Positions 39,165 through 43,678 of a DNA stretch of 64,000 nucleotides are shown in pieces. Below the pieces are notes generated by a model that saw only the letters and a list, made by a program, of their open reading frames with translations, had not been told where the DNA came from and made no database searches. Position numbers and translations under genes: made by a program. Positions within the stretch are counted from its first letter, which is position 1. Each line of letters opens with the position of its first letter. Origin of the DNA: an uncultured Agathobacter sp. (GTDB taxonomy: Bacteria; Bacillota; Clostridia; Lachnospirales; Lachnospiraceae); assembly GCA_944381555.1 (NCBI GenBank), contig CALWLL010000056.1, forward strand, positions 167,893 through 231,892, in the 5' to 3' direction.

Positions 39165-40910
39165 CTAAGCGCGCACATCAAACGAGTATCTATGCAGCAG
39201 CCCTGTAGACGGTGCATCTTTTTTCAGAAAATCTTCTGCAAAGTTTACATGACGTCCCCCGTTTTCTACTTCTATCTTACAGTTATAGCCTTTGGCGCGA
39301 AGCCGCTCCTCCAATTGCGGCATATATGCTTTTACAAGGTCATACGCCGCATCGCTGTCCATATAGAATCTGGTAGCAACTTCCTTCTTATGCATGCGCA
39401 CCGATACATCCGTTGCGCCTAAATGCTCCAAATCCAAATGCAAAAATGCCGTCAAATCACGTTCCGGATCTTCCAGATTTCGCTTATTTGTGTATACATA
39501 CAGTTGTCCGCTTGCATTCTGATTACTCATTTTAAGAGGTATCTGTGTATAAATATATGCTTCATTTAACTGATTCATAAATTCCACATTTGCATGAATG
39601 TCACTTACCGTCTGTGCCAGCGGCGTACTTTTAAGTCCGGCATTCTGTAAGAGCGTTTCGAGTCTTTGCATTTTATCATCCAAACGGTTATACAGCTTCT
39701 TTAATTTTTCACCATCTGCCACATCCTTTGGCGCAAGATACGTCTGGCCTTCTGTCATCTGCTTCAGAAGGCTTTTCATATCTTCAGATGAAAACAACTG
39801 TAATAAAGCCTCCTTTGTTACATTCTCTCCGCCTGCAATATGTGAGGCTAATTTTTGCAGCATGTTCATTGGAGAATCGTCAGGGGTAATCTGGGTATCC
39901 CCAAAGAGATTCTTAATAAGAGTTATTACTTTTTTAAGGCCAGTATTCTGCATTACTAATTCCTGCGATGACTGGCTGTTATATATATCCTGCATATTCT
40001 GTTCGTTTGGAACAGCCTGCTTCTGCTGTGCGCCTTCTTTTATTTCCAGGTTCTTATCCCGCAGAACATTTACTGCCGCCTCTTCCTCTAACGCCTGTTG
40101 TCCGTTTGTCCCCTGTATCGTATCGTCTGTGGTTTTGACGGATGTATTTCCATTTGCAGCCGCATCCTGTATTCCCGCTTCTGCCTGATTTCCATTAACA
40201 TTTGTGCCGTTTTGGAGTTCTCCCTCTGCCCCCTCTGCCAAAAGCATCAGAAGCTGGCTGTCAAAAGCCTTCATCTGTTCTAAAGGCATATTCTTCGAGG
40301 ATAAAACCGCAGGTAATTCTGCAATAAATTTATCCAAAGCAGTGTGAACCGCACTTTTATCCTCCACATAGTTTTCAAATTGTGCAGCCATTTCGGCAGT
40401 AATCGGAATATTTAATTTTTTCATCTGTACCAACGTCTGCACATTCGTATCGGGATGATTCATAAGGATACGAGCCATCTGTGCCATACTGTTTTTATCA
40501 ATGGGCATCTGCTCCTGCATCATGGTATTTGCCATATTCAGATACCTATCCCGAATCGGCAGATTCGCGGCTTTTAGTGCATTTAAAAGCGTCAGATTCG
40601 CACCTGAACCGTCTACGGTATACGGACGGATGGCAATTGTCGCACCATCATTGGATTTTACCTGAAAAAACATAGACTGCCCCTGCACAAGCTGCATATC
40701 AGCTTCTATGCGTGCCGAAAGCTCCATCCCGTTAGACAATCCCAATAAGACTTGGTTTCCTTTAATAGAATTAACGGTTCCTTCAAAAATATTGCCAACG
40801 GTCAGACTGCGTACAGAAGAAACGAGGCTCTCCACGCCCCTTGTTCCATTCATAGATTCCGCTGATGAAGTTGTGCTGATATACTGTTTTGCCAAATCGG
40901 AAATCTGCAT
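39165..40910 (-). CDS. FliK-like large protein (YlqG position)
   Basis: 581 residues. An N-terminal beta-rich segment (about 36-100, with GNQVLLGLSNGMELSARIE) is followed by a long low-complexity Gln/Asn/Ala-rich middle (about 230-320). The C-terminal 150 residues resemble the hook-length domain of FliK: LGATDVSVRMHKKEVATRF and a final LEERLRAKGYNCKIEV. Its middle shows the typical ruler-like composition. It is encoded between rnhB and the FlhB-tail gene, the same order as ylqG-ylqH in Bacillus. Assignment to FliK is by pattern only. Confidence 0.7.
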   Translation of the reverse strand: MQISDLAKQYISTTSSAESMNGTRGVESLVSSVRSLTVGNIFEGTVNSIKGNQVLLGLSNGMELSARIEADMQLVQGQSMFFQVKSNDGATIAIRPYTVDGSGANLTLLNALKAANLPIRDRYLNMANTMMQEQMPIDKNSMAQMARILMNHPDTNVQTLVQMKKLNIPITAEMAAQFENYVEDKSAVHTALDKFIAELPAVLSSKNMPLEQMKAFDSQLLMLLAEGAEGELQNGTNVNGNQAEAGIQDAAANGNTSVKTTDDTIQGTNGQQALEEEAAVNVLRDKNLEIKEGAQQKQAVPNEQNMQDIYNSQSSQELVMQNTGLKKVITLIKNLFGDTQITPDDSPMNMLQKLASHIAGGENVTKEALLQLFSSEDMKSLLKQMTEGQTYLAPKDVADGEKLKKLYNRLDDKMQRLETLLQNAGLKSTPLAQTVSDIHANVEFMNQLNEAYIYTQIPLKMSNQNASGQLYVYTNKRNLEDPERDLTAFLHLDLEHLGATDVSVRMHKKEVATRFYMDSDAAYDLVKAYMPQLEERLRAKGYNCKIEVENGGRHVNFAEDFLKKDAPSTGLLHRYSFDVRA

Positions 40911-40935: not shown

Positions 40936-41697
40936 TTAGATAAAGTTTCCTATAAAACTCCTTCTGTGAATTGGCGTCGGACCATACTTCTTAATTGCAG
41001 CAATGTGTTCTGCCGAGCCATATCCCTTATTAGATGCAAAGCCATACTGTGGAAAAATACGGTCGTATTCTTCCATCAGACGGTCTCTTGTTACTTTTGC
41101 AATAATGCTTGCCGCTCCAATGGAAATGCTTTTAGCATCTCCTTTAATAATCGGAACCTGTTTCATCAAAAGATTTGGTATTGTAACCGCATCATTTAAC
41201 AGCAGATCCGGCTGCGGATTTAACTTTCCGACTGCCTGACGCATCGCTTCATAGGTTGCCTGAAGAATGTTGATTTCATCAATACGCTCTGGCTCTATCA
41301 TTCCAAGTTCCGCAGCCACCGCCTTCTCCATGATTTCATCATAGAGTTCTTCTCTTTTGGCAGCAGACAGCTTCTTGGAATCATTGATATACAATATATC
41401 ACAATCCTTTGGCAGAATAACCGCACCGGCAACAACCGGTCCTGCCAATGGGCCTCGTCCAACCTCATCAATTCCTGCAATATAGCAAAAGCTATCGTAC
41501 TCTTTTTCATATTTTTTCAGGTTTTCTGTGCGGGCAATTTCCGCCAGATATTTTTCCTGACGTTTTTGGGCCGCAGCAACAAGTTTTTGTACCCCGCTTC
41601 GTTCATCTGACCGATAGGTTTCAATAAACCTTTGCAGCTCTTTTATCGTTATCGCTTCTAATTCTGCTTTAATGGCGCCGATTTTCTTCTCTTCCAT
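40936..41697 (-). CDS. rnhB: Ribonuclease HII
   Basis: 253 residues. GIDEVGRGPLAGPVVAGAVI carries the first Asp and Glu, LLLND the third acid and AKVTRDR the fourth. An N-terminal extension of about 65 residues precedes the core and is common in Firmicutes RnhB. It removes ribonucleotides from DNA and RNA-DNA hybrids. It lies between rbgA and the FliK-like gene. Confidence 0.97.
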   Translation of the reverse strand: MEEKKIGAIKAELEAITIKELQRFIETYRSDERSGVQKLVAAAQKRQEKYLAEIARTENLKKYEKEYDSFCYIAGIDEVGRGPLAGPVVAGAVILPKDCDILYINDSKKLSAAKREELYDEIMEKAVAAELGMIEPERIDEINILQATYEAMRQAVGKLNPQPDLLLNDAVTIPNLLMKQVPIIKGDAKSISIGAASIIAKVTRDRLMEEYDRIFPQYGFASNKGYGSAEHIAAIKKYGPTPIHRRSFIGNFI

Positions 41698-42595: not shown

Positions 42596-43177
42596 TTAAT
42601 GTACAAATCCCATATCTTTTAGGGAATTAAACCGGAACCATGCTTTCCCCACAATGTATTCCTTCTTTACGTTGCCAATGTTGGCATAACGGCTGTCTTC
42701 ACTATTATTCCGGTTATCACCCAGCACAAAATATTCGTCATCGCCAAGCGTTATTTCCTCTCCTGCGATTCCGGCTTCCTCCATTGACGCCACCTCTATT
42801 TTTTCATCGTACAGTTTTCCATTAATATATACTGCCCCATCTTTAATCTGAATCTTATCTCCCGGAACGCCAATGACGCGGCGCACATAATAATGGGACT
42901 TTTCATTGCCGTTTGGAAGAAAAACCACCACATCCCCGGACTGCGGATTTGACAGTACATACACAAATTTATCCAATAGTATCTGATCTCCGTTTTGCAG
43001 GTTGTCTGCCATTGCCTGTCCCACAACGCTGGTACGCGTACCCCAGAAATAAATACATACATACGCAATAAATATAACTATAGAAATCTGAATAATCCAG
43101 CCCATAATTTCCTTAAACAGCGGCATATTAAATTTTCTTCTCTGCTTTCCGAACTGTAATCCGTTTCTTCGTCTCAT
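42596..43177 (-). CDS. Signal peptidase I homologue, catalytic residues apparently lost
   Basis: 193 residues with the full S26 layout: a basic cytoplasmic tail, one membrane helix (about 27-44) and the two-domain catalytic fold ending in the box LGDNRNNSEDSRY. However, the usual G-x-SM-x-x-T-L box reads GQAMADNL, with Ala55 where the catalytic Ser should be, and the usual Y-x-K-R-x-x-G-x-PGD box reads YYVRRVIGVPGD, with Arg99 where the catalytic Lys should be. All structural motifs are kept, so it looks like an intact non-peptidase paralogue rather than a decayed gene. GGAG lies 6 bases before the ATG. Confidence 0.9.
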   Translation of the reverse strand: MRRRNGLQFGKQRRKFNMPLFKEIMGWIIQISIVIFIAYVCIYFWGTRTSVVGQAMADNLQNGDQILLDKFVYVLSNPQSGDVVVFLPNGNEKSHYYVRRVIGVPGDKIQIKDGAVYINGKLYDEKIEVASMEEAGIAGEEITLGDDEYFVLGDNRNNSEDSRYANIGNVKKEYIVGKAWFRFNSLKDMGFVH

Positions 43178-43223: not shown

Positions 43224-43252
43224 ATTATATAAAAATCATGCCTTTTTCGCAA
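43224..43252 (-). promoter_or_regulatory. Promoter of the LepB homologue gene
   Basis: Minus strand TTGCGA (43247-43252), 17-base spacer, TATAAT (43224-43229). It lies behind the rplS terminator, so the lepB-rbgA-rnhB run has its own start. Confidence 0.75.
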
Positions 43253-43277: not shown

Positions 43278-43309
43278 AAAAAAACGACGCAGCCATCGGC
43301 TACGTCGCT
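43278..43309 (-). terminator. Intrinsic terminator of rplS
   Basis: Minus strand stem CGACGTAGCC / GGCTGCGTCG with a 3-base loop and seven T. Confidence 0.92.
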
Positions 43310-43324
43310 TCATTACGCAATTGT

Positions 43325-43678
43325 TTATTTTACTAATTCTTTAACCTTAGCAGCTTTACCAACGCGGTCTCTTAAGTAGTAAAGTTTTGCACGTCTTACT
43401 TTACCTTTGCGTACAACTTCTACTTTTTCTACGTTTGGTGAGTGAAGCGGCCATGTTTTTTCTACACCACAACCGTTAGAAAGTTTTCTGACTGTGAAAG
43501 TAGCACGATTGCTTCCACCCTGTTTCTTAATAACTGTTCCTTCGAAAACCTGAATTCTTTCACGGTTTCCTTCTTTGATTTTACCGTAAACTTTTACAGT
43601 ATCACCAACGGAAAATACAGGAACTTCTGCTTTTAACTGTTCTGCTTCAATGCTTTTAATAATTTCGCTTGCGTTCAT
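43325..43678 (-). CDS. rplS: 50S ribosomal protein L19 (bL19)
   Basis: 117 residues, normal length. Conserved blocks [31 protein letters not shown] and [22 protein letters not shown] are intact. It sits at the 30S-50S interface. It has its own promoter and a terminator, so it is a single-gene transcript here; trmD is not adjacent upstream. Confidence 0.99.

What the first reader, a model, noticed from the sequence alone, without database searches (positions are those of the whole stretch)
42596..43177. LepB homologue in which both catalytic residues appear replaced
The sequence shows GQAMADNL where signal peptidase I has G-x-SM-x-x-T-L, so the nucleophile position is Ala55, and YYVRRVIGVPGD where the general-base lysine is expected, so that position is Arg99. 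The structural boxes, including LGDNRNNSEDSRY, are intact and the gene has a good promoter and ribosome-binding site. Established knowledge: S26 peptidases need the Ser-Lys pair. Inference: this is a maintained pseudoenzyme, perhaps a signal-peptide binding or regulatory protein, or it uses another residue.
Basis: partly seen in the sequence, partly recalled or inferred. Interest (0 to 1): 0.72.

Follow-up and report, generated by a model that had tools for sequence, protein, structure and literature searches.

The report
Conserved inactive signal peptidase in Lachnospiraceae
A gut-bacterial gene that looks like the enzyme that trims export tags off secreted proteins has lost both cutting residues, and the same two swaps have arisen repeatedly and been kept in its relatives, which points to a job that does not involve cutting.

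Summary
The 193-aa ORF at 42596-43177(-) is a full-length S26 signal peptidase I with Ala55 for the Ser nucleophile and Arg99 for the Lys base. It is neither an error nor decay. In the window's genus, 30 of 60 orthologues read are Ala/Arg, 27 Ser/Lys, 3 Ser/Arg. The Ala/Arg genes use all four Ala and all six Arg codons; closest-pair dN/dS is 0.04-0.09, like the Ser/Lys ones. Their S1/S3 signal-peptide pocket residues are conserved. Wherever another SPase gene of such a genome was read, it is Ser/Lys.

The same exchange recurs at this locus (rplS-lepB1-rbgA) across Lachnospiraceae. On a tree built without the two columns, Arg needs 11 changes (at least 9 forced) and Ala 9 (at least 7 forced). 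In lepB1 every Lys replacement seen is Arg; Ser replacements are Ala, with one Thr. The paralogue behind rbgA (lepB2) is nearly always Ser/Lys. lepB1 often carries a basic GLxF tail motif that lepB2 lacks.

Best reading: a maintained pseudoprotease that holds signal peptides without cutting, comparable to SipA. Inactivity and binding are inferred, not assayed. New variant of a known kind.

The parts
42596..43177 (-). lepB1, catalytically replaced signal peptidase I homologue, 193 aa
43127..43177 (-). codons 1-17: basic N-tail (cytosolic by inference) with the lepB1 GLxF motif (here GLQF)
   Evidence: GLxF in 44 of 52 A/R, 104 of 168 S/K, 4 of 9 S/R lepB1; 0 of 139 lepB2; 0 of 23 other SPases
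43043..43126 (-). codons 18-45: single N-terminal helix, taken as the transmembrane anchor
   Evidence: helix 18-45 in the AlphaFold2 model
43013..43015 (-). Ala55 codon (GCA) at the nucleophile position
42881..42883 (-). Arg99 codon (CGC) at the general-base position
42689..42730 (-). box E, FVLGDNRNNSEDSR, intact
43224..43252 (-). promoter-like site TTGCGA-17-TATAAT
   Evidence: weak statistical support
43281..43311 (-). intrinsic terminator-like hairpin between rplS and lepB1
43325..43678 (-). rplS (ribosomal protein L19)
   Evidence: Pfam PF01245
41729..42577 (-). rbgA/ylqF-type GTPase
   Evidence: Pfam PF01926; gene name recalled
40936..41697 (-). rnhB (RNase HII)
   Evidence: Pfam PF01351

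Best explanation
LepB1 is a membrane-anchored signal peptidase I homologue that has lost proteolysis but is maintained as a pseudoprotease. Its surface domain keeps the Ala-X-Ala cleft, with Ala55 removing the nucleophile and Arg99 keeping the positive charge without a usable base, so it can hold signal peptides or their c-regions without cutting. It may delay, present or protect preproteins, or partner the active SPase. Cleavage is done by a separate Ser/Lys SPase (in this genome the C33 gene). Shown: residue loss, conservation, recurrence, purifying selection, retained pocket residues, an active-type copy elsewhere. Inferred: inactivity, peptide binding, and the biological role.
For: 30 of 60 genus orthologues read are Ala/Arg. 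All 4 Ala and all 6 Arg codons are used; dN/dS of the 8 closest A/R pairs is 0.038-0.085, against 0.021-0.072 for S/K. Ala/Arg occurs in five further genera: 15 of 16 orthologues in g320 and 5 of 6 in g92, and one genome each of g28 (very probably Hominisplanchenecus faecis, also read as L147), g68 and g85. In an even family sample, 82 syntenic lepB1 genes read were 74 SK, 4 AR, 3 SR, 1 AK. On a tree built without the two columns, Arg needs 11 changes (at least 9 forced) and Ala 9 (at least 7 forced); 0% of 200 bootstrap trees have a single origin. S1/S3 pocket residues named for SpsB (PMC4704075, passages) map to T49, V51, M56, L60, V85, V98, each kept in 28-30 of 30 A/R congeners. S/K SPase at G000:C33. 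SipA is a precedent read in part: no dyad, cleft kept, essential for pilus polymerisation (PMC4049620).
Against: No assay. The AlphaFold2 model is moderate (pLDDT 72.9, residues 157-165 under 50) and cleft geometry was not inspected. In the genus the A/R proteins are looser than the S/K ones in several regions (mean entropy box B 0.81 against 0.45, residues 164-193 1.11 against 0.62), with mean identity also lower (0.66 against 0.74). In g92 constraint looks weaker: ratios 0.088, 0.164 and 0.263 where computable among the closest pairs, the rest saturated; several of the other pairs also have dS above 1.4. Family-wide the pocket residues vary in both states. Most sampled lepB1 genes (74 of 82) are still Ser/Lys. 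S/R genes persist and could be weakly active. One AK gene (L230) breaks the rule that Ala comes with Arg.
Confidence: 0.6

Rival explanations
1. Structural or scaffold pseudoenzyme: the protein is kept for its basic GLxF tail and membrane anchor, or as a partner subunit of the active SPase; the cleft is conserved only for folding.
For: The GLxF basic tail is specific to lepB1: 44 of 52 A/R and 104 of 168 S/K genes, against 0 of 139 lepB2 and 0 of 23 other SPases. The gene sits between rplS and an rbgA-type gene.
Against: Pocket-lining residues are kept in 28-30 of 30 A/R congeners. 64 of 168 S/K and 8 of 52 A/R lepB1 lack the strict motif, though 4 of the 8 have the close forms SLNF or ELNF.
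Confidence: 0.25
2. It is still a peptidase, using another residue or Arg as base.
For: Box E and Gly53 are intact in the A/R set; Arg keeps the charge; 9 distinct S/R genes persist.
Against: No new invariant Ser, Thr, Cys or Lys in the A/R set. Arg is a very poor general base and Ala cannot attack (general knowledge). The Ser-to-Ala exchange is the one that crystallographers made in SpsB as a catalytic mutant (PMC4704075, passages).
Confidence: 0.06
3. Decoy for SPase-directed natural products (arylomycin type): a cleft that soaks up inhibitor.
For: Pocket residues kept without the dyad; SipA's cleft binds a peptide much as arylomycin binds SPase I (PMC4049620, section 9 read).
Against: Inhibitor contacts to Ser and Lys (recalled) would be lost; no producer or resistance context was looked for.
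Confidence: 0.05
4. Relaxed, decaying duplicate with no function.
For: lepB1 and lepB2 are often both present, so one copy could be spare; some S/R copies have altered box E (L153; L278); g92 shows weaker constraint.
Against: dN/dS 0.04-0.09 in the window's genus, identical replacement residues with free synonymous codons, no stops in the 60 congeneric genes, persistence across genera.
Confidence: 0.04

Closest known systems
SipA of Streptococcus pyogenes pilus clusters (PMC4049620; passages and section 9 read)
   Same: SPase I fold, Ser-Lys dyad lost, peptide-binding cleft kept, no detectable peptidase activity reported; Foldseek hit 4n31
   Different: SipA has Asp48/Gly85 and belongs to pilus gene clusters; LepB1 has Ala/Arg, sits at rplS-rbgA, and its dyad loss recurs on the tree
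SpsA of Staphylococcus aureus (PMC12445088; passages read)
   Same: inactive SPase I homologue in a genome with an active one (SpsB); lacks two conserved catalytic residues
   Different: described as dispensable, no role given in the passages seen; its replacing residues were not checked here
SpsB of S. aureus / LepB of E. coli (PDB 4wvg, 4wvi, 1b12)
   Same: boxes, fold, S1/S3 pocket residues
   Different: Ser/Lys proteases; the crystallised SpsB S36A mutant (PMC4704075, passages) carries by design the Ala that is natural here together with Arg

Membership tests
Type I signal peptidase (S26, active) | S26 profile over the curated cut-off | tested here: met
   PF10502 136.8 bits, TIGR02227 139.9 bits
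Type I signal peptidase (S26, active) | N-terminal membrane anchor and SPase fold | tested here: met
   helix 18-45; Foldseek best hits SpsB and LepB, best E 1.5e-8; moderate model, TM-scores about 0.5
Type I signal peptidase (S26, active) | Ser nucleophile in box B | tested here: not met
   Ala55
Type I signal peptidase (S26, active) | Lys general base in box D | tested here: not met
   Arg99
Type I signal peptidase (S26, active) | cleaves signal peptides | not testable with these tools
   needs an assay
Pseudo signal peptidase (SipA/SpsA kind) | SPase fold with the dyad lost and gene maintained | tested here: met
Pseudo signal peptidase (SipA/SpsA kind) | peptide-binding cleft retained | tested here: met
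   by sequence only: six pocket positions kept in 28-30 of 30 congeners; geometry not inspected
SipA proper | located in a pilus gene cluster | tested here: not met
   the five neighbours scanned are L19, RbgA-type GTPase, RNase HII, FliK-like, SpoIVA
SipA proper | Asp and Gly at the dyad positions | tested here: not met
   Ala and Arg

The most novel reading that the evidence does not exclude
Lachnospiraceae have repeatedly turned a housekeeping signal peptidase into a non-cleaving signal-peptide receptor: the LepB1 cleft captures exported preproteins and its basic GLxF tail reports or tethers on the cytosolic side (ribosome, SecA or the active SPase). This would be a convergent regulator of protein export that was reached by the same Lys-to-Arg and Ser-to-Ala exchanges in several genera.
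Probability: 0.28. Interest if true: 0.8.

Novelty: new variant of a known kind. Interest (0 to 1): 0.62.

Why it matters
Here the same catalytic pair is replaced by the same two residues many times within one bacterial family, at a locus next to ribosome genes, while the substrate-pocket residues stay conserved in the window's genus. That is a natural experiment suggesting a selected role other than cutting, and it supplies Ser/Lys, Ser/Arg and Ala/Arg orthologues, some from named isolates (Lachnoclostridium sp. An196, Hominisplanchenecus faecis), to test what a signal peptidase does without proteolysis. It also warns annotation pipelines: NCBIfam's equivalog model for signal peptidase I accepts this protein well above its cut-off.

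Tried and rejected
Sequencing error or pseudogene: rejected by 30 of 60 congeners, free synonymous codons and low dN/dS. Alternative nucleophile: none found by column comparison. Single origin or lateral transfer: the AU test was not run and no species tree was made; parsimony on trees without the two columns needs 7 changes for Arg and 11. The place of the two Ser/Arg genes L061 and L062 is unstable: grouped with the Ala/Arg clade (98/94, trait columns included), apart from it. Link between loss of lepB2 and Ala/Arg: no clear pattern. In the genus a second SPase was seen behind rbgA in 7 of 27 Ser/Lys and 2 of 30 Ala/Arg loci (lower bounds, flanks are short), while in g320 it is beside lepB1 in 15 of 16. 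The first R-motif scan used a pattern that excluded GTG and undercounted; redone, where 17 of 397 genomes match and 6 of the 17 are SPases. No complex was modelled; model coordinates were not examined. Rfam: no hit in the window. PMC12414704 is not held. PMC13104630: the passages shown for 'SpsA' were names of spa/sasD signal-peptide constructs or other text, none on the peptidase SpsA. PMC12445088 gives Lys83 as SpsB's base, whereas counting in the alignment puts the Lys of YVKRV at 77; I used the alignment.

Literature: in the listings (capped lists) I saw no paper on an Ala/Arg or Lachnospiraceae pseudo-signal-peptidase; the library holds open-licence PMC papers only.

Full report
OBSERVATION. 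The ORF at 42596-43177 on the minus strand encodes 193 aa that match Peptidase_S26 (136.8 bits, cut-off 22.9) and NCBIfam signal peptidase I (139.9 bits, cut-off 47) over nearly the whole profile. The residue at the nucleophile position is Ala55 (GCA, 43013-43015) and at the general-base position Arg99 (CGC, 42881-42883). The PDB alignment puts Ala55 on SpsB residue 36, which is Ala in chain 4wvg and Ser in 4wvh (the S36A catalytic mutant is described in PMC4704075, passages), and Arg99 on the Lys of YVKRV. The AlphaFold2 model (20-sequence alignment, pLDDT 72.9, pTM 0.63) has one N-terminal helix (18-45) and the SPase fold; Foldseek's hits up to E 0.001 are all SPases I or the pseudo-SPase SipA (23 hits, SpsB 4wvg best).

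SURROUNDINGS. Order on the minus strand: SpoIVA, rplS (L19), terminator-like hairpin (43311-43281), promoter-like site (43252-43224), lepB1, RbgA-type GTPase, RNase HII, FliK-like protein. The genome (2.31 Mb, 66 contigs, 97.8% complete) holds two Peptidase_S26 genes: this one and a 246-aa one at C33 with PTGSM and FVKRIIGLPG, that is Ser/Lys.

THE GENUS. Among 62 genomes of the genus, 61 have a match. I read 60 orthologues at this locus, the window's own included: 30 Ala/Arg, 27 Ser/Lys, 3 Ser/Arg. In the Ala/Arg set all four Ala codons and all six Arg codons occur, so the amino acid, not the DNA, is what is kept. Pairwise dN/dS of the eight closest pairs is 0.038-0.085 for Ala/Arg and 0.021-0.072 for Ser/Lys; several of these pairs have dS above 1.4 and are rough. 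In 9 of the 30 Ala/Arg genomes I read another SPase gene, and it is Ser/Lys in each (G000, G007, G008, G009, G012, G013, G015, G016, G026).

BEYOND THE GENUS. A scan of named genomes with the Ala/Arg alignment (capped: 80 best loci kept of 578) gave, by residue reading, 72 Ser/Lys, 7 Ala/Arg and 1 Ser/Arg. The 7 are four MAGs whose proteins equal congeners of the window, Lachnoclostridium sp. An196, Eubacteriales S27M_St_57, and Hominisplanchenecus faecis; the Ser/Arg one is Lachnospiraceae bacterium C7 (equal to congener L061). In the genus that holds the An196 sequence (g320), 16 of 17 genomes have the orthologue: 15 Ala/Arg and one Thr/Arg, with a Ser/Lys lepB2 read beside it in 15 of 16. 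In g92, 6 of 7 genomes: 5 Ala/Arg, 1 Ser/Arg, each with a Ser/Lys SPase elsewhere; constraint looks weaker there. For an even estimate I took 100 genera (one genome each, at least 90% complete) and read 87 loci (30 given, 57 fetched). Of these, 82 have a SPase placed as lepB1 by synteny with rplS or rbgA: 74 SK, 4 AR (one is the window itself; the others G088, G128, G145), 3 SR, 1 AK; 5 loci have none. Three further genomes of the 100 were read earlier: G152 AR, G138 SR, G177 SR. The other 10 were not read. In the same loci lepB2, the paralogue behind rbgA, is SK in 54 of 57 rows; the three others are one real SR (L265), one further SPase-like ORF at a locus edge without the SxM motif (L280) and one cut row (L239). 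Over everything read, distinct by the last 120 residues, lepB1 is SK 168, AR 52, SR 9, TR 1, AK 1, and lepB2 SK 136 of 139. These totals are enriched for the genera that I searched on purpose.

RECURRENCE. On trees from which the two columns had been removed, Arg needs 7 changes (at least 5 forced by well-supported branches) on 115 representatives and 11 (at least 9 forced) on 161; Ala needs 9 (at least 7 forced) on the 161 (the Thr row had been thinned out). 0% of 200 bootstrap trees have one origin. Bootstraps had not fully settled, and some changes could be reversions: L009 (Ser/Arg) sits inside the Ala/Arg clade. In lepB1 every Lys replacement seen is Arg. At other Lys-dominated lepB1 columns 31% of replacements are Arg, and at Ser-dominated ones 35% are Ala (few columns, 5 and 3). 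By rough hand arithmetic, if all forced changes were independent losses, nine all-Arg changes would have chance about 3e-5 and seven all-Ala about 6e-4. Ser/Arg is commoner than Ala/Lys (9 to 1 distinct), so Lys-to-Arg probably tends to come first.

WHAT IS KEPT. The SpsB S1/S3 pocket is formed by Tyr30, Ile32, Met37, Leu41, Val66, Asp74 and Val76 (PMC4704075, passages). By the alignment (Tyr30 by one step beyond its start) these fall on T49, V51, M56, L60, V85, Y96 and V98. In the 30 Ala/Arg congeners they are T in 29, V 30, M 30, L 30, V 30, Y 30, and V 28 with I 2. Box E is nearly invariant. No new invariant nucleophile or base appears. Against this, box B and the C-terminal part are somewhat looser in Ala/Arg than in Ser/Lys congeners, and family-wide the pocket varies in both states. 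A second conserved module is the N-tail: strict GLxF in 44 of 52 Ala/Arg, 104 of 168 Ser/Lys, 4 of 9 Ser/Arg and the one Thr/Arg lepB1 (not in the Ala/Lys one), but in 0 of 139 lepB2 and 0 of 23 other SPases; its distance from the nucleophile position is the same in 144 of 153.

HOW IT MOST LIKELY WORKS. Shown: loss of both catalytic residues, maintenance, recurrence, retained pocket residues, presence of a Ser/Lys copy. Inferred: it does not cut; it can still hold Ala-X-Ala c-regions in the membrane-proximal cleft; through this or through its tail it modulates export or the active SPase. Precedents are SipA (inactive, cleft kept, essential for pilus polymerisation; PMC4049620, passages and section 9) and SpsA (inactive, dispensable; PMC12445088, passages). 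I did not find a described Ala/Arg or Lachnospiraceae case in the listings.

VERDICT. The finding is real and larger than reported: not one odd gene but a recurrent, conserved pseudoprotease state of the rplS-rbgA-linked LepB1 in Lachnospiraceae. It is a new variant of a known kind, the pseudo signal peptidases. Mechanism unproven.

Noticed in passing
window 43127-43177 (-) and lepB1 loci: Basic N-tail with a GLxF motif at a nearly fixed distance from the nucleophile position (same in 144 of 153), specific to lepB1 in either catalytic state, absent from the 139 lepB2 read. No function known to me.
   Followed up: partly
loci L073-L152, e.g. L087 4001-6035: In many Lachnospiraceae loci the order is rplS-lepB1-rbgA-lepB2; the window's genome lacks lepB2 there.
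   Followed up: partly
L230 1471-2019: The only Ala/Lys lepB1 seen (G115): Ser replaced, Lys kept.
   Followed up: no
L265 3516-3968: A Ser/Arg lepB2 beside a Ser/Lys lepB1 (G130): the reverse of the usual pattern.
   Followed up: no
L153, L278, L245: Some Ser/Arg or Ala/Arg genes also carry altered box E (VLSDD, VLCDD, NHCED), perhaps further along in loss of the enzyme.
   Followed up: no
window 39165-40910 (-): FliK-like flagellar hook-length protein (Flg_hook) directly downstream of rnhB.
   Followed up: no
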